Source: a bacterium 1XD42-54 | GTDB lineage: Bacteria > Bacillota > Clostridia > Lachnospirales > Lachnospiraceae | DNA: 64,000 nt | Reading direction: 5' to 3' | Assembly (NCBI GenBank): GCA_003612585.1 | Contig: RAZH01000003.1 | Span: 164,968 to 228,967, forward strand | Shown here: positions 4,033 through 42,470 of the stretch, piece after piece | Position numbering within the stretch: the stretch's first letter is position 1 | Layout of the letters: every line of letters begins with the position of its first letter | Program-made: the position numbers and the translations under genes | The notes under the pieces: generated by a model | Told to the model about the DNA's origin: nothing | The model's input: only the letters and a program-made list of their open reading frames with translations | Databases searched by the model: none

Positions 4033-4093
4033 AAAAAGAACCCCGCATAAAATATTCTTCCCCTGAAAAAATACCTTAAGCGGGATTCTTTTT
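4033..4093 (-). terminator. Rho-independent terminator downstream of rnpB
   Basis: Minus strand aaaagaatcccgct...gcggggttctttttg hairpin with U-run. Confidence 0.65.
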
Positions 4094-4096
4094 ATA

Positions 4097-4475
4097 AGCA
4101 GGACGATAAGCCGGGTTATGTCGTGAATGGTCATCTATCCAGACCTGCCGTTGCCGGCAGGTTCCAGCAACCTACCTGAAGCTGACGGGCCGCCATATGC
4201 TTCGTTTCGGTCTTGCTTCGGATGGGGTTTACATATGCCCCTCCCGTTACCGGGAGGGCGGTAGTCTCTTACACTGCCCTTCCACCCTTACCGGAGCCGC
4301 TTGCATGTTCCGTAAAACAGAATCCACAGCACTGCACCGGCGGTTCATTTCTGTTGCACTATCCTTAGAGTCGCCTCCACCGGACGTTATCCGGCATCCC
4401 TGCCCTGTGAAGCCCGGACTTTCCTCGTCTGGCACCTTTCGGCCTGCCAGCCGCGACCATTTATCCTACTTACAG
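4097..4475 (-). ncRNA. rnpB: RNase P RNA (bacterial)
   Basis: Minus strand contains GAGGAAAGTCCGGGCTTCACAGGGCAG, GGAGGCGACTCTAAGGATAGTGCAACAGAAA and 3' ACATAACCCGGCTTATCG, hallmark conserved regions of RNase P RNA. Confidence 0.95.
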
Positions 4476-4537
4476 TGGCATTCTACCACATCTTTTTTTA
4501 CTTTGCAAACTTTTCTATCGTGAAATATGTCACTCTT

Positions 4538-4909
4538 TTATCTCTGTATGCATGCAACAGCTGCTTCCCACTCTTTCTCTTTAAAACCTACCAGTACACA
4601 ATCCTGCGTAACCAGAATCGGGCGTTTCACTAACATCCCGTCCGTAGCCAGCAAATCCAGTTTTTCATCATCCGTCATGGACGGGAGGCGGTCCTTCAAC
4701 TTCATTTCTTTATACAAAATCCCGCTCGTATTAAAAAAACGTTTCAGTTCCAGACCACTTTTTTCATACCAGGCAGCAAGCTCCTCCTTGGATGGATTTT
4801 CCTGTTTGATATCCCTCAAATCATATGGTACCTTCTGTTCCTTCAACCAGTTTTCTGCTTTTTTACAGGTGCTACATTTCGGATAACATACAAATAAATT
4901 CATTTTCAC
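4538..4909 (-). CDS. ArsC/Spx-family protein
   Basis: CYPKCSTCKKAENWLKEQKVPYDLRDIKQENPSKEEL; ...RPILVTQDCVLVGFKE. Confidence 0.85.
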   Translation of the reverse strand: MKMNLFVCYPKCSTCKKAENWLKEQKVPYDLRDIKQENPSKEELAAWYEKSGLELKRFFNTSGILYKEMKLKDRLPSMTDDEKLDLLATDGMLVKRPILVTQDCVLVGFKEKEWEAAVACIQR

Positions 4910-4921
4910 ATTTGTCCTTTC

Positions 4922-6592
4922 TTACAGATCAAAACATCCTCCGCCTATAAACTCCCGAATCAGTGAATTATTCGGTATACTGTCGCTCGGTATCGGCAAA
5001 AAATAATCCAGAAATTTCAGCAGTCGTTTCGCTTCCTCATATTCTTTTTCCTCCGGGCTCACAGAAAACAGCAGCGGTTCCGCATACTGTTTTAAAACTG
5101 CCAGTTCATAAATCAAAGCTGAATTAAACATAATATCAGCCTCTTCCTGATACGGAAAAATATAGTTTTCTTCACCGCGGCGCACAGATGGCCACATTTC
5201 TATGGTTCGCCTTGCATCCGCTCCTCTTGTTCTTGCATCGCGCACAATCCGTCGCAGCAGCCTGCCGTCTGTCGTTGGGATGCGATTGTGCTCGTCAATG
5301 TTCAGCTGAGTGAGGGCACTGATATATATTTTAAATTTACTCGCTTTCGGCAGACGGTTTGTTAACCGGTCATTCAGACAGTGTATTCCCTCAATCAGCA
5401 AGATGTCGTTTTTCCCCAGTTTTTTATACTTTCCTTTATACTCCCGCTTTCCTGTTTTGAAATTAAAGCTTGGGAGCTCTACCGTCTTTCCTGCCAGCAG
5501 ATCTTCCATATCCTGATTCAGCTGCAAAATATCAATTGCTTCCAAACGCTCAAAATCCGGCTTGCCCTCTTCATCAAGCGGTGTCTTTTCCCTGTTTACA
5601 AAATAATCATCCGCTGCAATCGGATGCGGATGTAAACCATATACGGAGAGCTGCGTGGAAAGGCGGTGGGAAAAAGTTGTTTTTCCTGAAGAAGACGGCC
5701 CGGCAATCAATACGATCTTTTTTTCCGGAGAAGCCGCAATCTGAGCTGCCATCTCCGCAATCTTTTTCTCGTGATATGCCTCCTGAATCATAATCAAATC
5801 CTTGACCTTATTGTGCACAATATAATGGTTCAATGCACCGACTGTCGGAATTCCAAGCCGCGCTCCCCATTCCATGGATTCTTTCTGTACATGGAAAATC
5901 TTTAAGTCCGGTTTAAAAACAGGAAGCTTTTCCGGTTCATAACCGGACGGAAACAGCAGCACAAATCCGTCTAAAAACAGCTTCAGGTCAAAATGTTTCA
6001 GATAGGAGGTGTCCGGAAGCATATACCCATAAAAATAATCTTCAAACTTCTCCAGGCTGTAGAGATTAACCTTTGACGCCCGGCGATAGCGAAGCAGTTC
6101 GCTCTTATCATACATCCGGTACTCATTGAATTTCCGACGGGCCTCATATGTATTCTCCGTCTTTTTTTCAATTGGAAGCGCTGCTTTTGCGAGCTCCTGC
6201 ATGCTGTTTTTTACCTGGTCGAGAAATTCCTGCGTAAGCTTTACTTTTCCCTGCATCGTGCAGTAATAGCCGCCGTTTACTGCAAAATGAACGCCTACGC
6301 GATCAATCAGACTGTTATCACCAACCGTATGATAGATCGCTTTCAACATCATCAGAACCAGACTTCTCGCATACGTACTGTGCCCTGCCTTACTCTCCGT
6401 GGTTAAAAATTCCAGATGACATCCATCCGGCACTGTCTTGTGAAGCTCCCGAAGCCTGCCGTCACATCGTGCAAGTACAATCGGATATTTTTTATCCCTC
6501 TGATGCTGCCGAGCAATATCCAGATAACATACGCCATCTTCATAAACTTCCTGCACGTTATTTATCCAAACGGTAATTTTGCCGTTCTCCAT
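4922..6592 (-). CDS. Nucleoside (uridine) kinase-like protein with TGS/threonyl-tRNA-synthetase-like N-terminus
   Basis: P-loop IVLIAGPSSSGKTTFSHRLSTQL, DDYFVNREKTPLDEEGKPDFERLEAID; start at MENGKITVW. Confidence 0.85.
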   Translation of the reverse strand: MENGKITVWINNVQEVYEDGVCYLDIARQHQRDKKYPIVLARCDGRLRELHKTVPDGCHLEFLTTESKAGHSTYARSLVLMMLKAIYHTVGDNSLIDRVGVHFAVNGGYYCTMQGKVKLTQEFLDQVKNSMQELAKAALPIEKKTENTYEARRKFNEYRMYDKSELLRYRRASKVNLYSLEKFEDYFYGYMLPDTSYLKHFDLKLFLDGFVLLFPSGYEPEKLPVFKPDLKIFHVQKESMEWGARLGIPTVGALNHYIVHNKVKDLIMIQEAYHEKKIAEMAAQIAASPEKKIVLIAGPSSSGKTTFSHRLSTQLSVYGLHPHPIAADDYFVNREKTPLDEEGKPDFERLEAIDILQLNQDMEDLLAGKTVELPSFNFKTGKREYKGKYKKLGKNDILLIEGIHCLNDRLTNRLPKASKFKIYISALTQLNIDEHNRIPTTDGRLLRRIVRDARTRGADARRTIEMWPSVRRGEENYIFPYQEEADIMFNSALIYELAVLKQYAEPLLFSVSPEEKEYEEAKRLLKFLDYFLPIPSDSIPNNSLIREFIGGGCFDL

Positions 6593-26142: not shown

Positions 26143-27375
26143 ATGAAAGAAAAAGTAATTCTGGCTTATTCCGGCGGTCTGGACACAACAGCGCTGATTC
26201 CGTGGCTGAAGGAGACCTTTGATTATGAAGTAATCTGCTGCTGCATCAACTGTGGGCAGGGTAATGAACTGGAAGGCCTCGATGAACGCGCAAAGCTTTC
26301 CGGCGCTTCCAAATTATATATTGAAGATATTGTAGACGAATTCTGTGATGACTTTATCATGCCATGCGTAAAGGCCGGCGCTGTTTATGAGCATAAATAT
26401 CTGCTCGGCACCTCCATGGCGCGTCCAGTTATCGCAAAGCGCCTTGTGGAAATCGCCCGCAAGGAAGGCGCTACCACCATCTGCCACGGCGCAACAGGAA
26501 AAGGAAACGATCAGATCCGTTTTGAACTTGGCATCAAGGCTCTGGCCCCGGATCTCAAAATTATCGCACCATGGCGTATGACCGATGTCTGGACCATGCA
26601 GTCCCGTGAGGATGAGATTGAATTCTGTAAACAGCACGGCATCAACCTCCCGTTCGACGCCAGCCAGAGCTACAGCCGCGACCGTAATCTGTGGCACATC
26701 AGCCATGAAGGCCTGGAGCTTGAAGATCCGGCGAACGAGCCGAACTATGACCACATGCTCGTGCTCAGCGTCACCCCGGAAAAAGCCCCGGATCAGGGTG
26801 AATACATCACCATGACGTTCGAAGCAGGTGTTCCGAAGACGTTAAACGGCAAAGAGATGAAAGTTTCTGAAATTATCTCTGAGCTGAATGTGCTTGGTGG
26901 AAAACACGGCATCGGTATTGTTGATATCGTCGAAAACCGCGTAGTGGGCATGAAATCCCGCGGCGTTTATGAAACGCCGGGCGGAACCATCCTCATGGAA
27001 GCACACGACCAGCTCGAGGAGCTGATCCTTGACCGCGAAACACTTGAGACAAAGAAAAAACTGGGCAGCCAGTTCGCCCAGGTCGTATACGAAGGAAAAT
27101 GGTTCACCCCGCTGCGCGAAGCAATTCAGGCATTCGTGGAATCCACGCAGCAATACGTGACCGGAGAAGTAAAATTCAAGCTGTACAAAGGCAATATCAT
27201 CAAAGCCGGAACGACTTCTCCATACAGCCTCTACAATGAGTCTCTCGCTTCTTTCACAACCGGAGATCTCTACGACCACCACGACGCAAGCGGATTCATC
27301 ACACTGTTCGGCCTTCCGCTGAAGGTTCGGGCCATGAAGCTTGCTGAGGCAAAGACACAGAAGGCAGATAAATAA
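26143..27375 (+). CDS. argG: Argininosuccinate synthase
   Basis: VILAYSGGLDTTALIPWLKE, GATGKGNDQIRFELG, FDASQSYSRDRNLWHISHEG. Confidence 0.97.
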   Translation: MKEKVILAYSGGLDTTALIPWLKETFDYEVICCCINCGQGNELEGLDERAKLSGASKLYIEDIVDEFCDDFIMPCVKAGAVYEHKYLLGTSMARPVIAKRLVEIARKEGATTICHGATGKGNDQIRFELGIKALAPDLKIIAPWRMTDVWTMQSREDEIEFCKQHGINLPFDASQSYSRDRNLWHISHEGLELEDPANEPNYDHMLVLSVTPEKAPDQGEYITMTFEAGVPKTLNGKEMKVSEIISELNVLGGKHGIGIVDIVENRVVGMKSRGVYETPGGTILMEAHDQLEELILDRETLETKKKLGSQFAQVVYEGKWFTPLREAIQAFVESTQQYVTGEVKFKLYKGNIIKAGTTSPYSLYNESLASFTTGDLYDHHDASGFITLFGLPLKVRAMKLAEAKTQKADK

Positions 27376-27746
27376 TAAAAGGCATGATTCACGGACTTTC
27401 TATTTTCATTACCATGAATCAAACGCCAAATCAGGCAGGGGATATCCCTGCCTGATTTTATATTTTTCTGATTTGTTACAATCACTTTATCTCCCTGGAT
27501 TACATAAAAGACAGAATAGTTATCTACCAACAGCCGTCTCATCTCTTTGTTCTGTTCCGGCTCCGATTCCACAATATGGATTCTCTCATCCAATGTATCC
27601 AATGTTAATATAGCATCTGCAATCCGGTTGTATTGATTTATTGCGTTTTCCGGTGACTGAAGGACATAAGCAATGTGATTATATAGTTGATCCATATCAG
27701 TCAACGCTTCATTTGTAATCTCAACCGTATATCGCTTCATAATCAA
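27270..27746 (-). CDS. RelE/ParE-family toxin with abnormal C-terminal read-through
   Basis: KRYTVEITNEALTDMDQLYNHIAYVLQSPENAINQYNRIADAI...YSVFYVIQGDKVIVTN; ORF continues through the argG terminator and into the argG 3' end. Confidence 0.75.
   Translation of the reverse strand: MIMKRYTVEITNEALTDMDQLYNHIAYVLQSPENAINQYNRIADAILTLDTLDERIHIVESEPEQNKEMRRLLVDNYSVFYVIQGDKVIVTNQKNIKSGRDIPCLIWRLIHGNENRKSVNHAFYYLSAFCVFASASFMARTFSGRPNSVMNPLASWWS
27428..27464 (+). terminator. Rho-independent terminator after argG
   Basis: AAATCAGGCAGGG-gatat-CCCTGCCTGATTT followed by tatattttt. Confidence 0.85.
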
Positions 27747-28027
27747 TGATTCTCCCTGAATTTTGCAAATGCCTCTGCTGCATTCTGTACTCTTCCTGCC
27801 GCTATATCATTGTATCCCTTTTCCAGTTTCTGATGGATTTCTTCTGTTGTCATAGCATCTGCATAAATGGATGCCGGCGCTTTTGGTAAAGAAACAGAAA
27901 ATGGAATTCCACCAGTAAGAGAAATCTGGTTTAAATACATATCAATGGCCGTTGACATGGGGACACCTAACTGAGATAATACTTTTTCTGCCCGTTCTTT
28001 GACCGTTGGATTTACTCTTAAATTCAA
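27743..28027 (-). CDS. RelB/DinJ-family antitoxin (5' end possibly frameshifted)
   Basis: NLRVNPTVKERAEKVLSQLGVPMSTAIDMYLNQISLTGGIPFSVSLP is a classic DinJ N-terminus; overlaps the toxin start by 4 nt. Confidence 0.85.
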   Translation of the reverse strand: MNLRVNPTVKERAEKVLSQLGVPMSTAIDMYLNQISLTGGIPFSVSLPKAPASIYADAMTTEEIHQKLEKGYNDIAAGRVQNAAEAFAKFRENH

Positions 28028-28206: not shown

Positions 28207-29511
28207 TCAGTTTATCATTGTCAGAATCTCTCTTGGATTCACCCGCATAATCCTCACACACGATAAAACTGTCACAATCACGCAGAAAATCATGCCCCCC
28301 GCTCCTGCTGTAATGACGCTTCCTGCCCGTAAGCCTGCACCCGGAAGTTCCAACACCTCTGCAAGGATGCGGACTCCCCCGTACACAAACGGAACGCAGA
28401 GAATCAGACTGCATAAATAAACAAGAAGATTTTCCGCCATCAGTCTGCCCACTATCTGTCTCTTTGAAAAGCCCAGTGAAAGAAGGATTCCGATTTCTCC
28501 CGTACGTTCCTGATTCCACATGGTCAGGACAATGACCAGTATAATTAGCCCAAGGAGAAGAACTGCAATCAGCATAGCAGAAAGAATACGGTTCATCTGC
28601 GTAAGAGGCGCTGCGCTGCGGTCATAATCCGCGCTGTTCGTGTTGATGAAGTAACTGTCCCAGTGATAGCCCGGAATGGATATCACGTTCTCAAGGCTGG
28701 CATCCAGAAGCGCCGGATCCTCCAGCTGCAAAATAAGTCCGTTCGTATACTGCCGCTCAGTCTGCCAGACCTCCTCTGCCACCTGCATTCCGCTTGCTTC
28801 ATCTACATAGATGTAGTTGGAAAGAATCTCCGGCTCCGCCCTTTGCGGGGAAGCATTATCTGCCTCAGGCGCAACGGTAAAAATTCCCACGATCTCAAAG
28901 CGATATGTATTTCCCACACCTGCGCGCGCCCTCATGACGATTTCATCCGTCACGGTTCCGGTTATGGTATCTCCTATCTTCAGGCCGTTCGCCTCTGCCA
29001 GATACTCAGAAATCACCGCTTTTTCCGTATCTCCGCTCTCTATCGCACGGCCCTTCGCCAGTTCCAGCTTTCCATCCGTAAACTCCCTGGCAAGGGCGCT
29101 TTCTGTGCACGCAACCATTCTTGCCGTCCGGGCGGCTTCCGTTCCTTCTGCTGTAAATTTCCCGGGGCATAAAAAGAGCTCCTTCATGGAGAGGTAAAAC
29201 GTATTGATTCCGGTCCATTTCTCAGGCTCCACTACCTGCACGACACTCCCTGCAAGCTCCGGCGTCACAACGTTCTCCTCATCAAACGTACACTCCACGG
29301 TCACGCAGGCAAAAAACTGCCTGCGCAGCTCTGTAAGTGAATCCTGTACTGCTGCTGTCAGCGTAATCCCCGAAAGCACAAGCACCAAAAGAAGAAAGAA
29401 AATTGCAGTAAGAACAGCGGTTCTGGATTTTTTTCTTTTCAAATACAGGACTGCATGCCCCAGAACCAATTTTTTATGATCTGTTTTATGAGTTTTATGA
29501 TCTGTTTTCAT
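28207..29511 (-). CDS. FtsX-like ABC transporter permease
   Basis: N-terminal TM plus MacB-like periplasmic region, C-term WNQERTGEIGILLSLGFSKRQIVGRLMAENLLVY; start at MKTDHKTHK overlaps upstream ATPase stop. Confidence 0.88.
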   Translation of the reverse strand: MKTDHKTHKTDHKKLVLGHAVLYLKRKKSRTAVLTAIFFLLLVLVLSGITLTAAVQDSLTELRRQFFACVTVECTFDEENVVTPELAGSVVQVVEPEKWTGINTFYLSMKELFLCPGKFTAEGTEAARTARMVACTESALAREFTDGKLELAKGRAIESGDTEKAVISEYLAEANGLKIGDTITGTVTDEIVMRARAGVGNTYRFEIVGIFTVAPEADNASPQRAEPEILSNYIYVDEASGMQVAEEVWQTERQYTNGLILQLEDPALLDASLENVISIPGYHWDSYFINTNSADYDRSAAPLTQMNRILSAMLIAVLLLGLIILVIVLTMWNQERTGEIGILLSLGFSKRQIVGRLMAENLLVYLCSLILCVPFVYGGVRILAEVLELPGAGLRAGSVITAGAGGMIFCVIVTVLSCVRIMRVNPREILTMIN

Positions 29512-30142
29512 CAGCCGCTTCCTTTGCCACAAAATGTTTGTCCTGAAACTCGCAGAGCACATCCGCCTCCTGCGCAAGGGCAGAGGAATGCGTTACCATA
29601 ATCACACACCGCCCCTCCTCATGGGCGCTTTTTTTCAAAAGCGCAAGAATGTCCTTTGCCGTATCCTCGTCAAGGTTTCCCGTCGGTTCATCAGCCAGAA
29701 GAATGGGCTTATTGCTGGCAATTCCCCTCGCAATAGCCACTCTTTGCTGCTGGCCGCCGGAAAGCTTTAAAACATTTCTGTCCCACAGTTCTTTTGAAAG
29801 CCCTACCTTTTCCAAAGCTTCCTCCACCGGAAGCTTTGCGGTGAGCGCCACATTTTCCTTAACTGTCATATATTCAATCAGATTATACCCCTGGAAAATG
29901 AAGGCCGCATGGTCCTGCCTGTGCCGGTCAAGGCCATATTCCCGGATATCTGTCCCGTTATAAAGGATTTTTCCTTTTCTGGGACTATCGAGCCCTCCGA
30001 GCAAAGAAAGCATCGTCGTTTTTCCGCATCCCGACTTTCCCAGAATCGCATACAGCTTTCCTTGTTCAAAATCAAGATTTACGTCCTCCAAAACGGTATT
30101 ATAATCCGTGTAAGAATACATCATATCAACAATCTGCAGCAT
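29495..30142 (-). CDS. ABC transporter ATP-binding protein (LolD/MacB-like)
   Basis: ILGKSGCGKTTMLSLLGGL, LSGGQQQRVAIARGI, ILLADEPTGNLDEDT. Confidence 0.93.
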   Translation of the reverse strand: MLQIVDMMYSYTDYNTVLEDVNLDFEQGKLYAILGKSGCGKTTMLSLLGGLDSPRKGKILYNGTDIREYGLDRHRQDHAAFIFQGYNLIEYMTVKENVALTAKLPVEEALEKVGLSKELWDRNVLKLSGGQQQRVAIARGIASNKPILLADEPTGNLDEDTAKDILALLKKSAHEEGRCVIMVTHSSALAQEADVLCEFQDKHFVAKEAADENRS

Positions 30143-31835
30143 TTTCCCGCCTCCTGTTCTGCTTTTTCCTTTTACTGCTTTTCTCTCTTATCGCTTTTCT
30201 TTCTTCTATCTTTCCATTTCTTATTTCGTATATTTTATCGCAGTTTTCCACGTATTTCAATTGATGGGTAATCAGAATTACCAGTTTGTCTCCCAGCAGT
30301 TCCAAACCCTCTGTGAAAAACCATTCCTCTGATTCATGATCAAAATTTGACGTACATTCATCAAAAATCAGCACAGGCGCCAGATGAAGCATTGCCCGTA
30401 GAAAGGCAAGCTTCTGTTTTTCTCCGCCGGACACGTTTGTCCCGCTCACACCGATCACAGTATCAAGCCCCTGCGGAAAATGTGCCAGCAGCTCTTCCAT
30501 TCCGGTCTCGCGAAATACGGCCTTCAGCTCCTCGTCTGTGTATCTGCCCTCATAATCCAGATTCTCCCGGACTGTCTCCTGAAAAAGATAAGGAAACTGA
30601 GACACCACAGAAAACAAAGCTCGGTACTCCTCAAGGTTAATCGCTCTGCTGTTTTTTCCATTTACCAGAACTTCGCCGCTGTCAGGCTCGTAAAAGCGAA
30701 GCAAAAGCTGAATCAGTGTGCTTTTTCCGCTTCCATTGTCTCCCACAACCGCAACCCGCTGTCCGCGGCGCAGCTGCATGGACGCATTTCTGATAACCGG
30801 CTTTTTTCCATATCCAAAACAAACCCTCTGTAATTCCAGGGTACGAAATTCCTGTTCCAGCTTACTGCCCCAAATCTGCTCTGTATCAAGATTCCAGAAT
30901 TCGTTCAGTCTTTTAAAAGAAGGGCGTATCTGCGCAACAATCATTTTTATATTCATCAGCATCGAAATCGGTCCTGTCACATTTCCGCTGTAAGAAATAA
31001 ATGCCAGTACACTTCCCATACTCATAGAACCGTTACAGACAAAATATCCGCCCAGAAGATAATAAATTCCCGTCATAATCCCCTGTATTCCAGCCTCCGC
31101 AGAAGAATGAAAAATATCCAGCATATTTATTTTCTGCTGCCCGCACAAAAGCTTTTCTTTCCGGCATGAAAACTGTTTTTCCTCTTTCTGATACCGGTTC
31201 TGAAGCTTTATTTCACGTATCCCGCTGATCCGGTCCGATATCCACGCATGAAAGCTCTGGTTCTCCTGAATATAGTTTTGAAACTGCTCCTCCTTCTTTT
31301 TACTCAAAATATGTAAAAATACAAATTTCACAGGAACACATACCAAAATACAAAGCGCCATTTTCCAGTTAATAAAAAACAGCCCAATCAGTCCGCTGAC
31401 GATACGGAGCGAATACGTAAACAGATACAGAACACCTTTATCAAGAAGTACGCCCGCACTTTCAATATCCGTATTTAACTGATGAATCAGCTCCGTACTG
31501 TTTTGTTTTGTAAACTGGCCTATTTTCAGACGAAGCACCTTTTGAAACGCCTGGACATGCAGCGTATGGAGCACATCATTGCGTACCCTTAAAAGCAACC
31601 AGTCCTGAAGCGCTTCCAGCCCCTGGACTGCCAGAATCAAAATAATCAACAGGCACGCATAGCCTACAACCCGTCCATATTCTCTTTGAAGCAGCCCTTC
31701 ATCCGTCAGCTTCTGCAAAATAAGCGGATGAAAAAAGCTTTCTGCCATACACAGAAGACAGGCGCCCGCGATCAGGACAAGGGCCGCCGTATGTTTCTTC
31801 ATGATCTGTAAAATCTGTATTATTACACTCTTCAT
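30126..31835 (-). CDS. ABC exporter (fused TMD-NBD), no C39 peptidase domain
   Basis: TM half followed by VAVVGDNGSGKSTLIQLLLRFY, VSGGEKQKLAFLRAMLHLAPVLIFDECTSNFD. Confidence 0.9.
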   Translation of the reverse strand: MKSVIIQILQIMKKHTAALVLIAGACLLCMAESFFHPLILQKLTDEGLLQREYGRVVGYACLLIILILAVQGLEALQDWLLLRVRNDVLHTLHVQAFQKVLRLKIGQFTKQNSTELIHQLNTDIESAGVLLDKGVLYLFTYSLRIVSGLIGLFFINWKMALCILVCVPVKFVFLHILSKKKEEQFQNYIQENQSFHAWISDRISGIREIKLQNRYQKEEKQFSCRKEKLLCGQQKINMLDIFHSSAEAGIQGIMTGIYYLLGGYFVCNGSMSMGSVLAFISYSGNVTGPISMLMNIKMIVAQIRPSFKRLNEFWNLDTEQIWGSKLEQEFRTLELQRVCFGYGKKPVIRNASMQLRRGQRVAVVGDNGSGKSTLIQLLLRFYEPDSGEVLVNGKNSRAINLEEYRALFSVVSQFPYLFQETVRENLDYEGRYTDEELKAVFRETGMEELLAHFPQGLDTVIGVSGTNVSGGEKQKLAFLRAMLHLAPVLIFDECTSNFDHESEEWFFTEGLELLGDKLVILITHQLKYVENCDKIYEIRNGKIEERKAIREKSSKRKKQNRRRENAADC

Positions 31836-32941: not shown

Positions 32942-34450
32942 CTATTCTATCATAGACAGTACTCTGATTGGTTCCAGCTTCAGCGTTTTCTTTATCGCTT
33001 CGTTAACACTATAATAAACGATCAGAAGCATCATAGCAAATACAAGTAAAGCAGTCTTCACCTCCACCCTGGTTGTCAGCTCCTTCGGCGGTTCTACTCC
33101 TGTCCTCTGATTTCTCGACATCTCCGCCACCTTGCTGTTTTCTCCACGAGCAATCGCCGCTTCTATTTCTTTTTCTGTATAAACCTTCTGCTCTCCTCCC
33201 TTGTTTACTGCTCCATATATTTGGTTTCCAATCCCTGGCGTGACTGCCAGGCTCACGATAAGAGCAAAGAAAAATGCGGTAAGTCCAAGCGCCAGATGCT
33301 CCCCTAAAAACTGCTTTCTGATCTCTTTTCCCGTGATTCCAAGAGACATCAGAATACCAGCCTCCCGCTTGCGCCTTTTCATCGAATGCAGGATTACCAG
33401 CATCAGAAGCAAAACGCCCGATGTCACTATAACTACAAGACAGACCGCCATAATTATTTTTAGTGTCCGCAAAGGCTTTACTGCCTGACTGTACAGACCA
33501 TCATCCTTCACGAGTTCATAATACTTCCAGTCTATCCAGTCAAGTTGTCTTACCTGCTCCATGACCTCGTCAAGTTCTGCCGGATTTTCCACAAAAAACT
33601 GGCTTGCACTCAGATAATATGGACGCCCAATTATCTCATCCAGCGCACGCCCGGCTTCATTGTCTGTAATCACCCAGTTTTCCAGAATGTCTATTTCTTC
33701 TGTATATTGAGTGACCGTCTGCTGGTAAGTCAATTCAAAAAATCCTACAATCTCCGTCTCTACTGACCCCAGTGATTCAATCGGATATTTCGCACGTACG
33801 TTCAAAGAATGAAGGTCAATTTTCAGCGTATCGCCCAGTTTTAAATGATTTCTTTTGGCAAAGTTTTCTGAAATAATGCATTTAAATGCATCGTCCGGCG
33901 TAATATGGCGGCCTTGGGTGAGCCGGAATGCACCGTTATAAAACTGGTCAAAATGACAGCTGTTCCTGGTATGATAAGTATACGTTATATACATCATATT
34001 TTTAGTCTCTTCTGGATCATAGGGCAAATGATGCTCATGCGTTGTAAAATAATTGTAACTCCATGCGTGATAGCCCGGAACCAGCTCATACTCATACAGC
34101 ATCACATCAGCTCTGCTCCCTGCCTCATAATCTGTAATCCCTTCCACTTCTTCTGTGATTCTGCGCACCATCGCTTCATCCACATTTGGACCAATATAAG
34201 TCCGTACAGGACTATCCATCCCTTCAATCGCACGGTCTTCCCACTGGTTCATATCATTTTTATCGGGCGTAAGTCCAATGCTGAAGCTTGTGCCGTACGT
34301 CCTTTCAATTGCTGAGATCGTATCCCTGGATGTATTGTAAATTGATACAGATACCAGCATAAAAAAAAGAAGAAAAAACAGTATTCCCAGTAAAAACATA
34401 TTGCTCTTTTTCCGGAATAACGATAATAATATTCGTTTTTTTTCTTTCAT
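32942..34450 (-). CDS. FtsX-like ABC transporter permease
   Basis: N-terminal TM, large extracytoplasmic domain, SMKRRKREAGILMSLGITGKEIRKQFLGEHLALGLTAFFFALIVSLAVTPGIG. Confidence 0.88.
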   Translation of the reverse strand: MKEKKRILLSLFRKKSNMFLLGILFFLLFFMLVSVSIYNTSRDTISAIERTYGTSFSIGLTPDKNDMNQWEDRAIEGMDSPVRTYIGPNVDEAMVRRITEEVEGITDYEAGSRADVMLYEYELVPGYHAWSYNYFTTHEHHLPYDPEETKNMMYITYTYHTRNSCHFDQFYNGAFRLTQGRHITPDDAFKCIISENFAKRNHLKLGDTLKIDLHSLNVRAKYPIESLGSVETEIVGFFELTYQQTVTQYTEEIDILENWVITDNEAGRALDEIIGRPYYLSASQFFVENPAELDEVMEQVRQLDWIDWKYYELVKDDGLYSQAVKPLRTLKIIMAVCLVVIVTSGVLLLMLVILHSMKRRKREAGILMSLGITGKEIRKQFLGEHLALGLTAFFFALIVSLAVTPGIGNQIYGAVNKGGEQKVYTEKEIEAAIARGENSKVAEMSRNQRTGVEPPKELTTRVEVKTALLVFAMMLLIVYYSVNEAIKKTLKLEPIRVLSMIE

Positions 34451-34511: not shown

Positions 34512-34694
34512 TCACTCGTAATTTGATACCTTAACATTTTTTCTTGAATCATTTACCAACTTCAAATATGCAGTATAATTCTCCGTATGTGCATCCCAAC
34601 ACGCACAGCTCACGCCCTCACACGGACACCAGCAAACAGACATTGCTAAAACACTATTACTTTTTCTTTCGTAGTTCTTTTTCAGTTTTCTCAT
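34512..34694 (-). CDS. Cys-rich putative RiPP precursor peptide
   Basis: MRKLKKNYERKSNSVLAMSVCWCPCEGVSCACWDAHTENYTAYLKLVNDSRKNVKVSNYE; RBS GGAGGTAACAGG-ATG; directly in the radical SAM operon. Confidence 0.8.
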   Translation of the reverse strand: MRKLKKNYERKSNSVLAMSVCWCPCEGVSCACWDAHTENYTAYLKLVNDSRKNVKVSNYE

Positions 34695-34756
34695 CCTGTT
34701 ACCTCCAATCGCAATAATATTTCTTTGCCCTGTTACACGCCGCCGCTATTGTACTT

Positions 34757-35026
34757 TTACCCCTCCTCTCTGATTTTTTCTGCGATACCCTTGACTGTAA
34801 AAAATTCAAAGGTTTCTATTGCAATCATTTCTGCCAAATTAACCTGGAATCTTCTTTCGATCTCCTGTATCACATATAACCAGTCTACCACAGGAATTCC
34901 CAACGTATCATCCAAAAGATTGAGTTCTCTGTCATTTACATGAATCCCTGTATAGTTTTCTACAATGCTCTGCACTGTTTCTTCAATTTCCTCTATATTT
35001 ATCCTATTTTTATCTTCCATATTCAC
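34757..35026 (-). CDS. Acyl-carrier-protein-related protein of a peptide maturation system
   Basis: NRINIEEIEETVQSIVENYTGIHV...IPVVDWLYVIQEIERRFQVNLAEMIAIETFEFFTVKGIAEKI has ACP-like helical pattern; 11 nt from the radical SAM gene. Confidence 0.78.
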   Translation of the reverse strand: MNMEDKNRINIEEIEETVQSIVENYTGIHVNDRELNLLDDTLGIPVVDWLYVIQEIERRFQVNLAEMIAIETFEFFTVKGIAEKIREEG

Positions 35027-35037
35027 GCCTCTTTCTT

Positions 35038-37203
35038 TTAAACGACCTCTGTATTTTCTTCTAATCTTTCCAAAAGCTTATCCATTTCCTTTTCAAAATC
35101 CTGGCTGTCCTCCCAAAGACAGACCAGTTGCGCCTGCTTCTCTGTATTTTTCAGGACAACGGAATCTTCATCAAAACACAGATAATCCGCTTTCCTTGTC
35201 TCCGGATCCAGTTTCATGTAATGCGGGCTGACACAGAAAAAATCCACCGGGAACTGATATTTGCCCATACAGCTTTCTTTCATATAGGCAAGATATGCAT
35301 CCCTTCGCTCTGCATCCATTTTGCACACGTTATAATACAGGTTGAAAATCGCAGCATCCACATCCAAAGCACGGGAAACTACTGCCAAAAGTTCTCCAAA
35401 ATGAAAATGCTCCTTTTCGCTTACCGGGAACATTCCCCCCGGAATCTCCACTACTACAATATCCGGATTTTCTCTGTCGCAAAGCTCTTTCACATACTTA
35501 TTTAGATTCAGAACTTTCTTTTCAAAGCCTTCTGCTTGGTCCAGGAAAAAGTCCGGAAGCTTCCTGTTACCTGCATTGCATACCGCCGGGTCAACGCCAA
35601 TGCCCAAGACCTGATATCCCTTTGTCCGGATAAATTCGCAGGCTCTGGCAAATGTCGCCGCTTTTGAACACTGTTCCCCCTGGCCAAGCACCACAAGAAC
35701 GGGAATCTCTAATTTTTCCATGCCATAATGCGGAAGTTCTTCTGCCTGAAATGGCTGTTCAGGCTCCGGCACAGCCCTCTTCTCTTCTTTCCTGTCCTTG
35801 TTTTCCTTCTGGCACTCATTAATCACACAATATTCATACAATTCATTGACAAATGTCTGTCTGCTCTTTTGACAGATTTCTAATTTTTTCTCTGCCGTTA
35901 CAAAGCTCTCTTTGTCCCCGCCTTCAATTCTCGCAACACATATTTCACAATTCTGCAGGGCAGGGCAGTTGATGCACTGTTTTTCCGTTAAACGCCCAAG
36001 GTTCAAAATCGGCTCCATTTTAGGAATACACAGTCCCTCATCCACATTTCCAATCGAAAAAGCGGATTCATTTTCTACTACCTTTTCACATGGATAAAAT
36101 GTCCCGTCAACAGACACAAAAATTTTTCGCATTCCCGGTATGCACGGCCCTCCATGATGTACAGACTTTCTCATATACCTTCCTTTTTTGAGTCCATCGA
36201 AAAATTTCTGTTTCATTACACAGGTAGTTCTGAACATCTGGTCTACCTGTTTCTCTTCCAGCATGCCTGCAAGGTACATCAAGGCTTTGAGATACATGTA
36301 TTTTCTGTTTAACCGGAAAGCGTTTTGATAATGAACCCATTCCTGATTTTTCAGATTTGTCTCTTCTACTTCATGATACTGTACCGCATGCTTCGGAATC
36401 AGCTCTGTGTGATCAAAAAATTCTGTTATCTTTTTCAAATCCACTTTGGGATTTAAGGTAATCATAAAGCCGAGATTTTTCCAGAATTCATAATCCTGCT
36501 CTTTTATAACAGCAATATTTTTCATAATCGTATCAAAAGAGCCTTTTCCTGTCCGGAATTTTCTGTTTTGGTCATGCTCTTCTTTCGGGCCGTCCAGACT
36601 TATATGAACAGTAAACTGATTTTCCGAAAGGAATTTCACCACCGACGGAGTCAGAAGCGTCCCGTTTGTTGTCATTGTAAAGGTATATTTTCTTTCACCC
36701 ATGCACTTTTTTATGTAAGAAACGCATTCCCGTATCAGTCCGATTTCCAGAAGAGGTTCCCCGCCATAAAAGGAAAAACACATCTCCCCGATCTCGCTGG
36801 AATGGCTAATAGCATAATCAATCGCCTTTTTGGCTGTCTCAAAAGTCATTTTCTTATCACAGTGTTCTCTTGTGAAATAGTTTCCGGAATATGCGCAGTA
36901 TGCACACCGGAGGTTACACTGCTGAGTCACCTGCAAAACAACCTGCCGTACCCTGCACTTTGCATAATGCTCCAGAAAATCTGTATCCGGGTGGCGGATC
37001 TCCTCCACAACATTCTCCTCCAGGATTCCCATATCACAAAATCTCTGCAACGCAGGGCAATGCTCCTGATCTGTTTTCCCCTGCTCATAAGCACGAAACT
37101 CTTCGAAGCTCTCTCTGTCAACAGGAATGACAGTATGTGTATTCCTGTCATAAATATAAGTTCCTCCGCATGTTTCTATTGTTTTTATAATGACCTTTTT
37201 CAT
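35038..37203 (-). CDS. Radical SAM/SPASM peptide maturase fused to a second C-terminal peptide-maturation domain
   Basis: CNLRCAYC; FYGGEPLLE; SPASM-like Cys cluster CxxCPALQNCEIC; C-terminal about 240 aa starts PVLVVLGQGEQCSKAATFARACEFIRTKGYQVLGIGVDP; RBS GGAGGAGG before MKKVIIKTIETCGG. Confidence 0.88.
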   Translation of the reverse strand: MKKVIIKTIETCGGTYIYDRNTHTVIPVDRESFEEFRAYEQGKTDQEHCPALQRFCDMGILEENVVEEIRHPDTDFLEHYAKCRVRQVVLQVTQQCNLRCAYCAYSGNYFTREHCDKKMTFETAKKAIDYAISHSSEIGEMCFSFYGGEPLLEIGLIRECVSYIKKCMGERKYTFTMTTNGTLLTPSVVKFLSENQFTVHISLDGPKEEHDQNRKFRTGKGSFDTIMKNIAVIKEQDYEFWKNLGFMITLNPKVDLKKITEFFDHTELIPKHAVQYHEVEETNLKNQEWVHYQNAFRLNRKYMYLKALMYLAGMLEEKQVDQMFRTTCVMKQKFFDGLKKGRYMRKSVHHGGPCIPGMRKIFVSVDGTFYPCEKVVENESAFSIGNVDEGLCIPKMEPILNLGRLTEKQCINCPALQNCEICVARIEGGDKESFVTAEKKLEICQKSRQTFVNELYEYCVINECQKENKDRKEEKRAVPEPEQPFQAEELPHYGMEKLEIPVLVVLGQGEQCSKAATFARACEFIRTKGYQVLGIGVDPAVCNAGNRKLPDFFLDQAEGFEKKVLNLNKYVKELCDRENPDIVVVEIPGGMFPVSEKEHFHFGELLAVVSRALDVDAAIFNLYYNVCKMDAERRDAYLAYMKESCMGKYQFPVDFFCVSPHYMKLDPETRKADYLCFDEDSVVLKNTEKQAQLVCLWEDSQDFEKEMDKLLERLEENTEVV

Positions 37204-37651: not shown

Positions 37652-38065
37652 ATGGACGGGTTACAGCTAAAGTTATGTGATATTCAAGGCAGACTGTTTG
37701 AGTTATCTGCCGAAAAGAAGTATGACAGTGCCGCTTTTGTGAAGGCATTTATGACATCCGACACCGCAAAGGCGCTTGACTCCGATTATAACCGGATGCA
37801 GTGGGCAGGTGAAGAATATCTGCTTGAGGAAATTGTGTCTGCCGCAAGCAGTTCATTAATCTCAGGCGGAGAAATATACTCCACTGATATTCTGTACTGG
37901 ATTGGCTACCTCTACCGCTATTGGCATTATTACAGCGGAGAAGACAGCGCAAAAATATATAAACAGGCCCCCGTTGAAACAATGAAACGCAACTATATGA
38001 TATTTCACACAATGGATCCTGTTCTGGCTATCGAGGATTTAAAAGAGATTCATAATCAAACATGA
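37652..38065 (+). CDS. Small protein encoded directly upstream of Fic (candidate antitoxin/partner)
   Basis: 137-aa ORF, 15 nt from the Fic ORF; no family recognised with confidence. Confidence 0.6.
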   Translation: MDGLQLKLCDIQGRLFELSAEKKYDSAAFVKAFMTSDTAKALDSDYNRMQWAGEEYLLEEIVSAASSSLISGGEIYSTDILYWIGYLYRYWHYYSGEDSAKIYKQAPVETMKRNYMIFHTMDPVLAIEDLKEIHNQT

Positions 38066-38080
38066 GGATGGAGGTGCGAT

Positions 38081-38689
38081 ATGGCACTTGAAAATAAATT
38101 GGGGCTGACCAGTTCTGCCGATCTTGCCCGTGAGGAAGAACGGATCAGCAAGAAAAAGGCTGCGGAACTTTTTGAAAAAGGAATTCTTGATAAATTAGAA
38201 GCTGGAAAGTTTTCTGCGCTCAAGGCTATTCATAAATATCTATTCGACGAAATTTACGACTTTGCCGGAAAAATCAGAACAGTAAACATTGCAAAAGGCA
38301 GTTTCCGTTTTGCCCCGGTGGTGTACTTGGAAGCGGCACTTGAAAACATTGATAAGATGCCGCAATCAACTTTTGATGAGATTGTAGAAAAGTATGTTGA
38401 AATGAATATCGCCCACCCATTTCGGGAAGGTAACGGACGCAGCGCCCGTATTTGGCTGGATCTGATTTTCAAAACCGAGCTTCACAGGGTCGTTGACTGG
38501 AGCAAGGTAGATAAAGAAGATTATCTTCTTGCTATGGAGCGTAGCCCGATTAAGGATATTGAAATCAAACACCTGCTGAAAAACGCCCTGACGGATGACA
38601 TCAATAGCCGTGAAATCTATATGAAGGGCATCGACCATAGCTACTACTATGAGGGTTATACATCCTTTAAGACAGAGGAAACGCTTTAA
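38081..38689 (+). CDS. Fic-domain protein
   Basis: HPFREGNGRSARIW matches the Fic HPFx[DE]GNGR signature; FDEIYDFAGKIRTVNIAKG. Confidence 0.93.
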   Translation: MALENKLGLTSSADLAREEERISKKKAAELFEKGILDKLEAGKFSALKAIHKYLFDEIYDFAGKIRTVNIAKGSFRFAPVVYLEAALENIDKMPQSTFDEIVEKYVEMNIAHPFREGNGRSARIWLDLIFKTELHRVVDWSKVDKEDYLLAMERSPIKDIEIKHLLKNALTDDINSREIYMKGIDHSYYYEGYTSFKTEETL

Positions 38690-39336
38690 TCAGCGTTTCC
38701 TAAAGGACAAAGCCGCCCTTCCTCCAGCTCATACACACGGTCACACAGGACTTCGATATCCTCCCTGTTATGGCTCGCCAGCAAAATCACCTTTCCCTTT
38801 TCTTTCATTTTCAAAAAAAGAGTCCGCATCTGGGCAACTCCCGCCTTATCCAGACCGTTCATCGGCTCGTCCAGTATCAGAATTGGCGGATCCTCCATGA
38901 TCGCCTGGGCGATCGCAAGCCTCTGCTTCATTCCAAGCGAATAAGTCCCTACATGTTTTCTGGAAGAAGGCTCAAGGCCTACTGTTTCCATCACCGACCG
39001 AAGATATATGCGGTTCATCTTATTACGGATTCCATATAAAAATTCGAGATTTTTCAGTCCACTTTTATTTCTCAAAAATGCCGGTTCTTCTATGATAATT
39101 CCAATTTTTCCACTGATATCATCCACCCTGGCATCATCGCAGGAGATTTCGATTGTACCTGAATCCGGCTGCAAAAAGCCACAGATACACTTGAACAATA
39201 CACTTTTTCCACATCCGTTATACCCAACAAATCCTACAATTTCCCCCGATTTACAGGTAAATGTCACATCCTGTAATACTTTATTATCCCGAAAAGACTT
39301 TTGCAGATTTTCTACTCTGATTGAAACTTCTTTCAT
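38686..39336 (-). CDS. ABC transporter ATP-binding protein
   Basis: GFVGYNGCGKSVLFKCICG, YSLGMKQRLAIAQAI, ILILDEPMNGLD; start at MKEVSIRVENLQKSF. Confidence 0.9.
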   Translation of the reverse strand: MKEVSIRVENLQKSFRDNKVLQDVTFTCKSGEIVGFVGYNGCGKSVLFKCICGFLQPDSGTIEISCDDARVDDISGKIGIIIEEPAFLRNKSGLKNLEFLYGIRNKMNRIYLRSVMETVGLEPSSRKHVGTYSLGMKQRLAIAQAIMEDPPILILDEPMNGLDKAGVAQMRTLFLKMKEKGKVILLASHNREDIEVLCDRVYELEEGRLCPLGNAD

Positions 39337-40205
39337 TCCGTTTCTCCATTCCATTTGAACTGATTTCGATGTACTCCCAATGATGCGATTCCAATGGCTG
39401 CAACAATATAGGCCAAACTCAGGCCAAAAACTACCGTAACAGGCGGCATAGCTGCATAGATATAATTTTTTGTAAAAAACAGCCCGGTCTGCAGCCAGGA
39501 CACCGGCGAGATCATATGCAACCAATAAAAATTATGTATGCCGAATGCCTGTGAACTAAATGGCAGAACAGCCAGAAATCCGACACACGTCAGAGCTACT
39601 GTCCTTCCAAAACAAAGACCAATCCCAAAAAGCAGGAAACCAAGCAATGTAAACACCAAACTATCCAGCCCAAATGCAAGAAGCGCTGCCTGCCATCCGT
39701 CTATCTGCTGAAGAAACGAATAGCTCAGGCCAAATGTTACATCGAACTCCTGCGCTGCATTTGTGAGGGACAGCGTATGGAGCATTTTGCCCCAGGAAAC
39801 CGTCCAGTCAATACGCGGAAGCTGATGCAGCAGTCCCATCAAAAACAAAGAGAGCGTAAAACTAAAACTACTTACCAGGATACTTCCCCGCTGTGCTGCC
39901 GCCCAGCGTCTTTTGCCCACCCGAATCATCTGATACATTCCGTTCCGGTTCAGGTAAGGCGCTCCGGAAAAAAGATAGACTGCTCCCAATCCTACGGCCG
40001 CACACATAAAATCATTTGTCATAACGCTTAAGATAAACCATGGAGAAGCCGGGTAATCAAGTCCCTTTACTGCACGTGCAAGACCCATATAATCTAAGTC
40101 CATTGCCCCAAACAGTAAAATCAATAAAATCCCGGTTCTCATCTGAAAAAAACGATGACGATAGAGCTGAAATGTATACTGAAGCTGTCGCCAGAACTTA
40201 CCCAT
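39333..40205 (-). CDS. ABC-type membrane protein (permease)
   Basis: Multi-TM protein between ATPase and a second membrane ORF; start at MGKFWRQLQ. Confidence 0.65.
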   Translation of the reverse strand: MGKFWRQLQYTFQLYRHRFFQMRTGILLILLFGAMDLDYMGLARAVKGLDYPASPWFILSVMTNDFMCAAVGLGAVYLFSGAPYLNRNGMYQMIRVGKRRWAAAQRGSILVSSFSFTLSLFLMGLLHQLPRIDWTVSWGKMLHTLSLTNAAQEFDVTFGLSYSFLQQIDGWQAALLAFGLDSLVFTLLGFLLFGIGLCFGRTVALTCVGFLAVLPFSSQAFGIHNFYWLHMISPVSWLQTGLFFTKNYIYAAMPPVTVVFGLSLAYIVAAIGIASLGVHRNQFKWNGETE

Positions 40206-40980
40206 TCCGTACCCTCCTTTCCACGCTTTTGCAAATGGCGGTCCCAATCAGAACAGATAAAAAAACTCCCAAAAGGAAAATAGCAGCTACTGTCAGCTTA
40301 TCATTTCCGAGTGCATTATAGTTAATCAGGAAAAAATGATCCGGATCCATCAGATATTTTCCACTTCCAAACACAACACTGATTCTGCGGATCAGATGAT
40401 GTGCCATCACCGGAAATGCCAGGACAAGCAACCCATTGGTAGTATACAGGGAAACCAACGCTGCCAAAAGCGCCAAAACAACCGCCCATACACCCTGGCA
40501 TATACTGTGTATCCACAAATACATAAAATAATTTCCGTTTTCAAGCAGTCCGGTGAAACCTCCAAACACAGATAACATCTCCAGTTCTCCGACACCAGCC
40601 TCCCACGGATATCGGCAGCGCAGCAGAAAAATATAGAGCATACGGCCAAATACCATTGAAATCTCCGCCGACACGGCAATCCATATACATTTTGAAATCA
40701 CATAATTTATGGCTTTTCCCCTGGTCAGCGCATATTTTATGTAGCCCTGTTCCATATCCTCCGCAAAACATCGCCCATACGCCAAGGTAGTAAACAGATA
40801 CACCAGAACTGTTGCATTGCTTCCCCAAACCCGGTAAAAACTGCGCAGCACTGAAACCCTAACCTCTGAAAACTGCTCTGCTCCCAACAAATGCACTACA
40901 CATACCCCTATGATTGCTAAAAGCATCTGCCACGAGCCGAAACATCGGTACAGATCCGTTCTCCAATATCTCGTTTTCAT
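40198..40980 (-). CDS. ABC-2-like membrane protein (permease)
   Basis: Multi-TM; AYGRCFAEDMEQGYIKYALTRGKAINYVISKCIWI resembles ABC-2 permeases. Confidence 0.68.
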   Translation of the reverse strand: MKTRYWRTDLYRCFGSWQMLLAIIGVCVVHLLGAEQFSEVRVSVLRSFYRVWGSNATVLVYLFTTLAYGRCFAEDMEQGYIKYALTRGKAINYVISKCIWIAVSAEISMVFGRMLYIFLLRCRYPWEAGVGELEMLSVFGGFTGLLENGNYFMYLWIHSICQGVWAVVLALLAALVSLYTTNGLLVLAFPVMAHHLIRRISVVFGSGKYLMDPDHFFLINYNALGNDKLTVAAIFLLGVFLSVLIGTAICKSVERRVRNG

Positions 40981-42059
40981 GCAACAATCTCCTTTCCGGA
41001 AACTGCATCTACCAGCATTGTGATTGTATATTCCCCTTCATCTGATTTTTCTGTAACATGGAAAAGCCAGGCCGGAATCGTAAAATAATCCCTCTCCTTT
41101 TCTCCCTGAACCACCGTCTGATATAAAGTGGCATCCATCACAAGATAATCCACCTCGTTCAAAATCGCATTGTATTTATCCGCAACAGTTGCCGTAATCT
41201 GAGAAAAATCTTTCAATTGCAACGTCTCTTCTTCCGCTTTAAACCTAAAATAGTAATCAACCTGCAGGTCCTCCAAGCCTCTGCGTGACCAGAGCACACG
41301 GATCGGTGCATTCATATCATTATTATCCGGAAACACATATTTGTGATAAACCGGAAGCCCCTGCCACGTCTGATGCATTACATAATAATATGCATCATCC
41401 TCTCTAGTCCAGGATTCTTTGTAATACTCACTGGTAATATTCCCCGTATGATCCTCCCATACTTCCTTTTCTTCCATCAAAGTATGCGGCAAGGTAAAGC
41501 CTGAAACAAGACATCCTTCCGTCGTTATTCCGATTTTTTGCAAGGTTTCCCTTACTGCATCCAGAGCCTCATTTGCTGACATCCCGTCCAGATCTTCTTT
41601 CCCTACATATTCTTCCGGCAAATTATCACGATCATCATAGTGTATAGCCGCACGGTAATAGTATGCGTCTGGCGTATTATACACCACACTTCCGCCAGCT
41701 GATAAATTGTAAAAATCCTCTGTCAGCAAATGAAAATACCCCGGCTCTCCCTCACCACCTTTTTCTTCTACCTTCTCCTTTATCTTCTTTTCTTCCAAGC
41801 CATCCAGAAAAACAGCTTTTACTGTCTCTACATCCGGAAGCTGAAGCTGCACGCGGCCCGCCTTTAAATTTTCCAGCTGCACGCCGTCCGCTATCTCAAG
41901 CCCAGCATCAAATGTAACCTTTTCTATCGTATTTTCATAATGTTCCGGGAACTCACAAATTTCCTGTATAACATCTTCAGCTTGTCTTGGACGGCCTGTA
42001 CAGCCGCCCAGCAATAATACTGATCCTATAAGTAATAATTTCAAATATTTTCTAGTCAT
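40977..42059 (-). CDS. Lipoprotein of unknown function
   Basis: MTRKYLKLLLIGSVLLLGGCTG lipobox; overlaps the permease start. Confidence 0.75.
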   Translation of the reverse strand: MTRKYLKLLLIGSVLLLGGCTGRPRQAEDVIQEICEFPEHYENTIEKVTFDAGLEIADGVQLENLKAGRVQLQLPDVETVKAVFLDGLEEKKIKEKVEEKGGEGEPGYFHLLTEDFYNLSAGGSVVYNTPDAYYYRAAIHYDDRDNLPEEYVGKEDLDGMSANEALDAVRETLQKIGITTEGCLVSGFTLPHTLMEEKEVWEDHTGNITSEYYKESWTREDDAYYYVMHQTWQGLPVYHKYVFPDNNDMNAPIRVLWSRRGLEDLQVDYYFRFKAEEETLQLKDFSQITATVADKYNAILNEVDYLVMDATLYQTVVQGEKERDYFTIPAWLFHVTEKSDEGEYTITMLVDAVSGKEIVA

Positions 42060-42071
42060 ACTAGTCTCCGA

Positions 42072-42470
42072 TTATGGTGTATAAGCTCCTGTCAGCTGAA
42101 CTCTGGGACCATATCCATTCAAATATTCACCTTCCATATAATAAAGCTCGCCATGTGGTACTGTAGTGTTATACGCTGCTGATTGTGTAGCTCCAACAAT
42201 AATCATCGTCCCATAAGGAGTATAGTATTGATTCGGCTTATATAAATGTTTTGATTTTGCTATTATCAATGTACTCGAATCTGATGAACTATACCCAGTT
42301 ACATAAAAGTAATTGTCCTGGTCATATGGATTCTTCTCTGCCCTTTTTGAAATAGGATCGGGAGAGCTCCCTCCCATCGTAATATTAAACGATACAGTTT
42401 GGGCCATTACTGTCATTGACATGGTCAAAAGTCCAATAATTGTTAAAATAGCAAAAATTTTTTTCTTCAT
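42072..42470 (-). CDS. Small secreted protein, unknown function
   Basis: MKKKIFAILTIIGLLTMSMTVMAQ signal peptide; first gene of the transporter operon. Confidence 0.7.
   Translation of the reverse strand: MKKKIFAILTIIGLLTMSMTVMAQTVSFNITMGGSSPDPISKRAEKNPYDQDNYFYVTGYSSSDSSTLIIAKSKHLYKPNQYYTPYGTMIIVGATQSAAYNTTVPHGELYYMEGEYLNGYGPRVQLTGAYTP

What the first reader, a model, noticed from the sequence alone, without database searches (positions are those of the whole stretch)
34512..34694. 60-aa Cys-rich precursor peptide with an unusual C-W-C-P-C-E-G-V-S-C-A-C-W core
The ORF has a strong RBS (GGAGGTAACAGG-ATG), a basic N-terminal leader-like region (MRKLKKNYERKSNSVLAMS), then five Cys in 11 residues bracketed by two Trp, then a polar tail. 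Five Cys is odd, so not all can be in disulfides; thioether links or metal binding are possible. The Cys block is central rather than C-terminal, so the follower might also be removed. It may be a divergent CLI_3235-like or Clo7bot-like peptide, but I could not assign a family by eye.
Basis: partly seen in the sequence, partly recalled or inferred. Interest (0 to 1): 0.82.

Follow-up and report, generated by a model that had tools for sequence, protein, structure and literature searches.

The report
Divergent CLI_3235-type Cys-rich peptide precursor
A Lachnospiraceae bacterium carries a small cysteine-rich peptide gene inside a nearly complete, already known type of peptide-antibiotic (RiPP) gene cluster; the peptide is a typical if divergent member, and the more unusual points are its fused maturase and a carrier-protein look-alike that has lost its carrier residue.

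Summary
The ORF is real (34512..34694, minus strand, 60 aa, GGAGG seven bases before ATG). It is the precursor of a CcpM-type radical-SAM peptide cluster of the CLI_3235 kind. NCBIfam TIGR04065 hits it at E 5e-4, below its cut-off (20.2 of 26 bits). A profile built from 27 precursors beside other CcpM genes, without the window's own, ranks it first at E 1.3e-5 against 1476 window ORFs and 1000 shuffles. Its first Cys at residue 21, Cys block at 21-32 and basic 19-aa leader are typical; odd Cys counts are common (15 of 29). The neighbours form an eight-gene same-strand set: CcpM (504.3 bits, cut-off 500) fused to part of TIGR04066, a TIGR04069-like acyl-carrier relative, FtsX permease, QhpE-like S8 protease with intact triad, ABC exporter, and an ATPase/FtsX pair. 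Probable mechanism: CcpM cross-links core Cys, the S8 protease removes the leader, the exporter secretes a bacteriocin. The chemistry is not shown here, nor for SacP23, the one tested relative found. Unusual: the maturase fusion, loss of the phosphopantetheine Ser in 23 of 25 'carrier' relatives, and a sharp divergence step inside the precursor gene between two species. A divergent variant of a known kind; modest interest.

The parts
34512..34694 (-). Precursor peptide, 60 aa (leader 1-19 = 34638-34694; Cys core 20-33 = 34596-34637; tail 34-60 = 34515-34595)
   Evidence: TIGR04065 20.2 bits; own profile E 1.3e-5; ortholog in L097. Leader/core/tail borders are inferred from the family alignment.
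34702..34706 (-). Ribosome-binding site GGAGG, 7 bases before the precursor ATG
   Evidence: read directly from the sequence
35038..37203 (-). Radical SAM/SPASM maturase CcpM (residues 1-464) fused to the C-terminal two thirds of a TIGR04066 protein (residues about 466-721)
   Evidence: TIGR04068 504.3 bits, cut-off 500; TIGR04066 140 bits, cut-off 200; CxxxCxxC and the 7 SPASM Cys conserved; fusion compared with relatives
34757..35026 (-). Acyl-carrier-related protein (TIGR04069-like), Val at the phosphopantetheine Ser position
   Evidence: TIGR04069 25.6 bits, cut-off 70; family profile matches PDB ACPs at about 1e-8; Ser column
32942..34450 (-). MacB-type FtsX permease, probable immunity or export
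   Evidence: PF02687 46.6 bits; duplicated in L097
31832..32923 (-). Subtilisin-like (S8) protease, QhpE-like, intact D7/H41/S185 triad, no strongly hydrophobic segment; probable leader peptidase
   Evidence: PF00082; NF049966 QhpE E 4e-23, below cut-off; triad in 17 of 17 relatives
30126..31835 (-). ABC exporter (membrane + ATPase domains, no C39 peptidase domain)
   Evidence: PF00664 and PF00005
29495..30142 (-). ABC ATPase of the lactococcin-972-export/MacB type
   Evidence: TIGR03608 179.3 bits, cut-off 254.85
28207..29511 (-). Second MacB-type FtsX permease (start codon uncertain; frame open to 29577)
   Evidence: PF02687 46.2 bits

Best explanation
The 60-aa ORF encodes the precursor of a CLI_3235-type Cys-rich RiPP. 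The basic 19-aa leader is bound by the CcpM radical SAM/SPASM enzyme, helped by its fused TIGR04066 domain and by an acyl-carrier-like protein that carries no phosphopantetheine and therefore acts as a docking or folding partner. CcpM uses SAM-derived radicals and two auxiliary Fe-S clusters to join core Cys sulfurs to carbon atoms of neighbouring residues (thioethers). The cytoplasmic QhpE-like S8 protease then removes the leader, and perhaps the polar tail goes too; the ABC exporter secretes the product. The FtsX/ATPase genes most likely give self-immunity. Shown: the gene set, family scores, catalytic residues, and the loss of the carrier Ser. Inferred: cross-link chemistry, order of steps, partner role of the carrier-like protein, tail removal, bacteriocin activity and immunity.
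For: TIGR04065 match; profile without the window's own sequences ranks it first at E 1.3e-5; same leader and Cys block position in 29 precursors beside CcpM genes. CcpM above its cut-off with radical SAM and SPASM Cys conserved. S8 triad invariant in 17. G082 (L112) has the same gene set, maturase 40% identical, with a precursor in the same place and FtsX, exporter, S8 and ATPase genes. The relative SacP23 cluster has CcpM, TIGR04066, TIGR04069, S8 protease and ABC exporter, and gives a secreted, heat-stable, antibacterial peptide (PMC10731318). The Qhp system shows the logic radical-SAM cross-link, then subtilisin-like leader removal, then ABC export (PMC7876137).
Against: The precursor and the two accessory families fall below their curated cut-offs. 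No product, expression or cross-link is known here, and the thioethers of SacP23 were not proven. The nearly identical core in L097 is no proof of selection, because the DNA up to that point is only about 3% divergent. Among the nearest other maturases the Cys count is 3-5 (L112, L135, L136), so individual Cys positions are not strictly conserved.
Confidence: 0.8

Rival explanations
1. CcpM makes one particular bond other than the generic thioether assumed above: Cys-to-alpha-carbon only (sactipeptide), Cys-to-beta/gamma-carbon (ranthipeptide), or a carbon-carbon cross-link involving Trp22 or Trp33.
For: The nearest other maturase models are of mixed chemistry: lachnocin, RumMC (sactipeptide), PapB (ranthipeptide), QHNDH maturase. 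The core holds C30-A-C-W-D34, a Cys-x3-Asp spacing, and Glu26.
Against: No family feature singles out one acceptor: Asp/Glu are absent from many of the 29 cores, and 13 of the 29 precursors have no Trp at all. Most cores are dominated by alternating Cys.
Confidence: 0.35
2. The Cys block is a metal-binding or redox site without cross-links; the maturase acts elsewhere.
For: Dense Cys-x-Cys pairs are also usual in metal-binding peptides (general knowledge).
Against: Precursors of this layout were found beside CcpM-type SPASM enzymes in more than 20 loci, a family reported to sit next to Cys-rich peptides (PMC7343975); no metal transporter or regulator gene is in the set.
Confidence: 0.08
3. The product is a signalling or host-interaction peptide rather than a bacteriocin.
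For: No killing assay exists here; FtsX/MacB transporters also serve export of signals (general knowledge).
Against: The MacB/FtsX genes beside the precursor look like self-protection; SacP23 kills Gram-positive bacteria (PMC10731318). No receptor or regulator gene seen in the set.
Confidence: 0.3
4. Spurious ORF inside an intergenic stretch.
For: Short, and short Cys-rich ORFs also occur by chance.
Against: Strong ribosome-binding site, family profile match far above shuffles, conserved place and start in a second species.
Confidence: 0.02

Closest known systems
CLI_3235 family bacteriocin precursors (TIGR04065) with CcpM (TIGR04068), TIGR04066 and TIGR04069
   Same: Leader M(K/R)KL..K....S(V/I)xA, Cys block starting near residue 21, polar tail; CcpM over cut-off; all accessory families present in some form
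   Different: Precursor 20.2 of 26 bits, TIGR04069 25.6 of 70, TIGR04066 140 of 200 and shortened and fused to CcpM; added FtsX/ATPase genes
SacP23 of Paenibacillus polymyxa #23 (PMC10731318)
   Same: 61-aa precursor with 19-aa leader; CcpM, TIGR04066, TIGR04069, S8 protease, ABC exporter
   Different: Separate TIGR04066 gene; an additional sigma-24-like gene; no FtsX pair listed; its structure is also undetermined
Qhp maturation system (QhpD radical SAM, QhpE protease, QhpF exporter; PMC7876137)
   Same: Logic of leader-dependent radical-SAM cross-linking, subtilisin-like leader removal in the cytoplasm, ABC export; the S8 protein resembles QhpE (E 4e-23) and the maturase matches the QHNDH maturase model (E 3e-45)
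   Different: Substrate is an enzyme subunit, not a small Cys-rich peptide; both matches are far below the Qhp cut-offs, so this is analogy, not membership
G082 locus L112 (same family, other genus)
   Same: Same gene set, maturase 40% identical, FtsX, exporter, S8 and ATPase genes present
   Different: TIGR04066 is a separate gene; core is CYSCVVYDC with 3 Cys

Membership tests
CLI_3235 precursor (TIGR04065) | Curated HMM cut-off of 26 bits | tested here: not met
   20.2 bits, E 5e-4, residues 1-33
CLI_3235 precursor (TIGR04065) | Match to a profile of precursors found beside CcpM genes | tested here: met
   E 1.3e-5 with window and ortholog left out; best shuffle 0.1
CLI_3235 precursor (TIGR04065) | Basic leader followed by Cys-rich core near residue 21 | tested here: met
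   First Cys 21, last 32; family first Cys 18-24 in 28 of 29
CLI_3235 precursor (TIGR04065) | CcpM maturase in the same gene set | tested here: met
   TIGR04068 504.3 bits, cut-off 500
CcpM (TIGR04068) | CxxxCxxC and SPASM Cys | tested here: met
   C96, C100, C103 and C354, C372, C410, C413, C419, C422 invariant, C444 nearly so
TIGR04066 maturation protein | Curated cut-off 200 bits, separate protein of about 360 aa | tested here: not met
   140 bits, positions 94-361 only, fused to CcpM
TIGR04069 acyl-carrier-related protein | Curated cut-off 70 bits | tested here: not met
   25.6 bits, E 1.3e-5; groups with the other loci's TIGR04069 proteins by iterative profile
Functional acyl carrier protein | Ser for phosphopantetheine | tested here: not met
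   Val in the window; Ser in only 2 of 25 relatives
Ranthipeptide or sactipeptide | Thioether from Cys to a beta/gamma carbon or to an alpha carbon | not testable with these tools
   Needs MS/MS or NMR of the product
Clo7bot | Match to a family model | tested here: not met
   No NCBIfam model other than TIGR04065 hit at E up to 1
QhpE protease | Curated cut-off 165 bits | tested here: not met
   81.9 bits

The most novel reading that the evidence does not exclude
CcpM-type systems use an acyl carrier protein fold that has lost its phosphopantetheine Ser as a fixed structural partner of the maturase, together with a TIGR04066 domain that here is fused to it: a RiPP maturation complex whose 'carrier' carries nothing and instead presents or shapes the substrate.
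Probability: 0.4. Interest if true: 0.55.

Novelty: new variant of a known kind. Interest (0 to 1): 0.35.

Why it matters
CLI_3235/CcpM clusters are annotated in Clostridia, Lachnospiraceae and Paenibacillus, yet no product structure was found in the papers I could search and the roles of TIGR04066 and TIGR04069 are unassigned. The fusion ties TIGR04066 to the maturase step, which argues against the published guess that it is an immunity protein, and the lost Ser argues against the reading that an acyl carrier modifies the peptide (both in PMC10731318). Both can be tested directly with this compact cluster.

Tried and rejected
PDB and Pfam profiles of TIGR04066 gave no reliable match; 2 of 20 members show a weak DUF1611 P-loop hit, best E 0.005. 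A scan of genome contigs with the maturase found only the near-identical locus L030, apparently the same contig as L097. IMG/VR gave one CcpM/TIGR04066 pair (L146) with no precursor detected. A viral scan with the TIGR04066 alignment could not run. Metal binding and a chance ORF were considered and set aside (rivals). Conservation of the five Cys in L097 was considered as proof of selection and rejected, because the upstream DNA is too similar to tell. A PDB search with a canonical ACP in the alignment was biased and was repeated without it.

Full report
What is there. On the minus strand, genes run in one direction without large gaps: 37203-35038 (721 aa), 35026-34757 (89 aa), 34694-34512 (the 60-aa ORF), 34450-32942, 32923-31832, 31835-30126, 30142-29495 and about 29511-28207. 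The ORF has GGAGG seven bases before its ATG. A sigma-70-like site with TG before the second hexamer lies at 37335-37307, about 100 bases before the maturase, but such sites are only modestly enriched in this stretch.

Family of the peptide. NCBIfam hits the ORF with one model only, TIGR04065 (CLI_3235 precursor), at 20.2 bits against a cut-off of 26. I collected CcpM-type loci from the same genus, family and order and read the short Cys-rich ORFs beside them. They share a basic leader of the type M(K/R)KL.K....S(V/I)xA(Y/F), then a Cys block, then a Ser/Thr/Asn-rich tail. A profile from 27 of them, leaving out the window and its ortholog, finds the ORF at E 1.3e-5; the best of 1000 shuffles of the same residues scores 0.1 and the best other window ORF 0.11. 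In 28 of 29 precursors the first Cys is at residue 18-24; the number of Cys varies from 3 to 8 and is odd in 15. So the layout that looked odd by eye (central Cys block, odd number, follower) is the family rule.

The maturase. The first 464 residues score 504.3 bits against TIGR04068 (CcpM), just over the cut-off of 500. C96, C100, C103 (radical SAM cluster) and C354, C372, C410, C413, C419, C422 are invariant, and C444 nearly so, in 19 relatives, which fits two auxiliary SPASM clusters. In the window and in L097 the same reading frame continues into the C-terminal two thirds of TIGR04066 (positions 94-361). In nearly all other loci TIGR04066 is a separate gene of about 340-380 aa; L090 has a different, full-length fusion of 835 aa. 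Two different fusions suggest that the two proteins act together. The fold of TIGR04066 remains open.

The 'carrier'. An iterative profile search puts 34757-35026 together with similar proteins in nearly all the other CcpM loci. Without any canonical ACP in the alignment, the family profile still matches solved ACPs at about 1e-8. At the Ser that carries phosphopantetheine the window has Val; the 25 family members have Pro 6, Ala 6, Val 5, Asp 3, Leu 2, Ser 2, Thr 1. The window has no Ser near that site. It can hardly be an acyl carrier; a docking role is my inference.

Protease and transport. The S8 protein keeps its triad in all 17 relatives aligned and has no strongly hydrophobic segment. 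Its best NCBIfam match is QhpE, below cut-off. QhpE removes the leader of the QhpD-cross-linked QhpC before ABC export (PMC7876137), a well-studied system of the same logic. The ABC exporter has no peptidase domain, so the S8 protein is the natural leader peptidase. FtsX permeases and a lactococcin-972-type ATPase complete the set; among the other loci only L112 has the whole combination, with some of these genes near L107, L139 and L140.

Two species compared. L097 (genome G243, same genus; also L030) has the maturase at 98.2% aa identity and the ACP-like protein at 96.6%, but the precursor at 75% and FtsX at 82.7%. The split is sharp: leader 0 of 57 bases differ, core 1 of 42, tail 31 of 81; dS is about 0.10-0.13 upstream and 0.56-0.59 in FtsX. 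The step lies a few codons after the last Cys. L097 carries two FtsX copies in tandem, and the window copy is about as far (82.7% and 84.2% nt) from each as they are from one another (83.3%). The likeliest reading is a recombination or copy-exchange border just behind the core, in a locus with tandem FtsX paralogues, on top of weak constraint on the tail. It also means that the nearly identical core in L097 cannot be used as proof of selection on the Cys.

Distribution. Only 2 of 47 genomes of the genus have a CcpM over the cut-off, and 8 of 392 sampled genomes of the order do. The cluster is sporadic, as is usual for bacteriocin clusters. It is flanked by RelB/ParE-like and Fic genes.

Literature. 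SacP23 of Paenibacillus polymyxa (PMC10731318) is the only tested relative that I found: the cluster expressed in Bacillus subtilis gives a secreted antibacterial peptide of 3404 Da against 4455 predicted, with a blocked N-terminus; thioethers were assumed, not shown. A CcpM/TIGR04066/TIGR04069/S8/ABC cluster in Roseburia intestinalis was reported without an obvious precursor (PMC4573289). The library holds open-licence papers only, so a later structure in a subscription journal could have been missed.

Verdict. A divergent relative, below three curated cut-offs but clear by profile and by setting, of the CLI_3235/CcpM kind of RiPP cluster. It works, most probably, by radical-SAM thioether formation, S8 leader removal and ABC export. 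The fused maturase and the Ser-less carrier fold are the points worth a specialist's time.

Noticed in passing
L097:14252-15760 and L097:15799-16135: Two FtsX permease genes in tandem behind the precursor, where the window has one; all three copies are about equally different from each other.
   Followed up: partly
L090:311-538, 2485-2706, 5810-6046 and 3096-5603: One CcpM fused to full-length TIGR04066 (835 aa) with three precursor genes around it.
   Followed up: partly
window 27273-28027 and 37652-38689: The cluster is flanked by a RelB/ParE-like toxin-antitoxin pair on one side and a 137-aa ORF plus Fic/DOC protein on the other.
   Followed up: no
window 38686-42470: A second same-strand set with an ABC ATPase (38686-39525), ORFs 39333-42059 with no Pfam match, and a 132-aa protein with a signal-like start (42072-42470); purpose unknown.
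   Followed up: no
L146:202-2697: An IMG/VR contig with a CcpM-like gene and a TIGR04066 gene next to an ORF (3226-3690) that by eye resembles a phage terminase small subunit; no precursor detected.
   Followed up: partly
L083 to L142, TIGR04069-like genes: The carrier Ser is missing in 23 of 25 TIGR04069 relatives, so the loss is a family trait, not a peculiarity of the window.
   Followed up: yes
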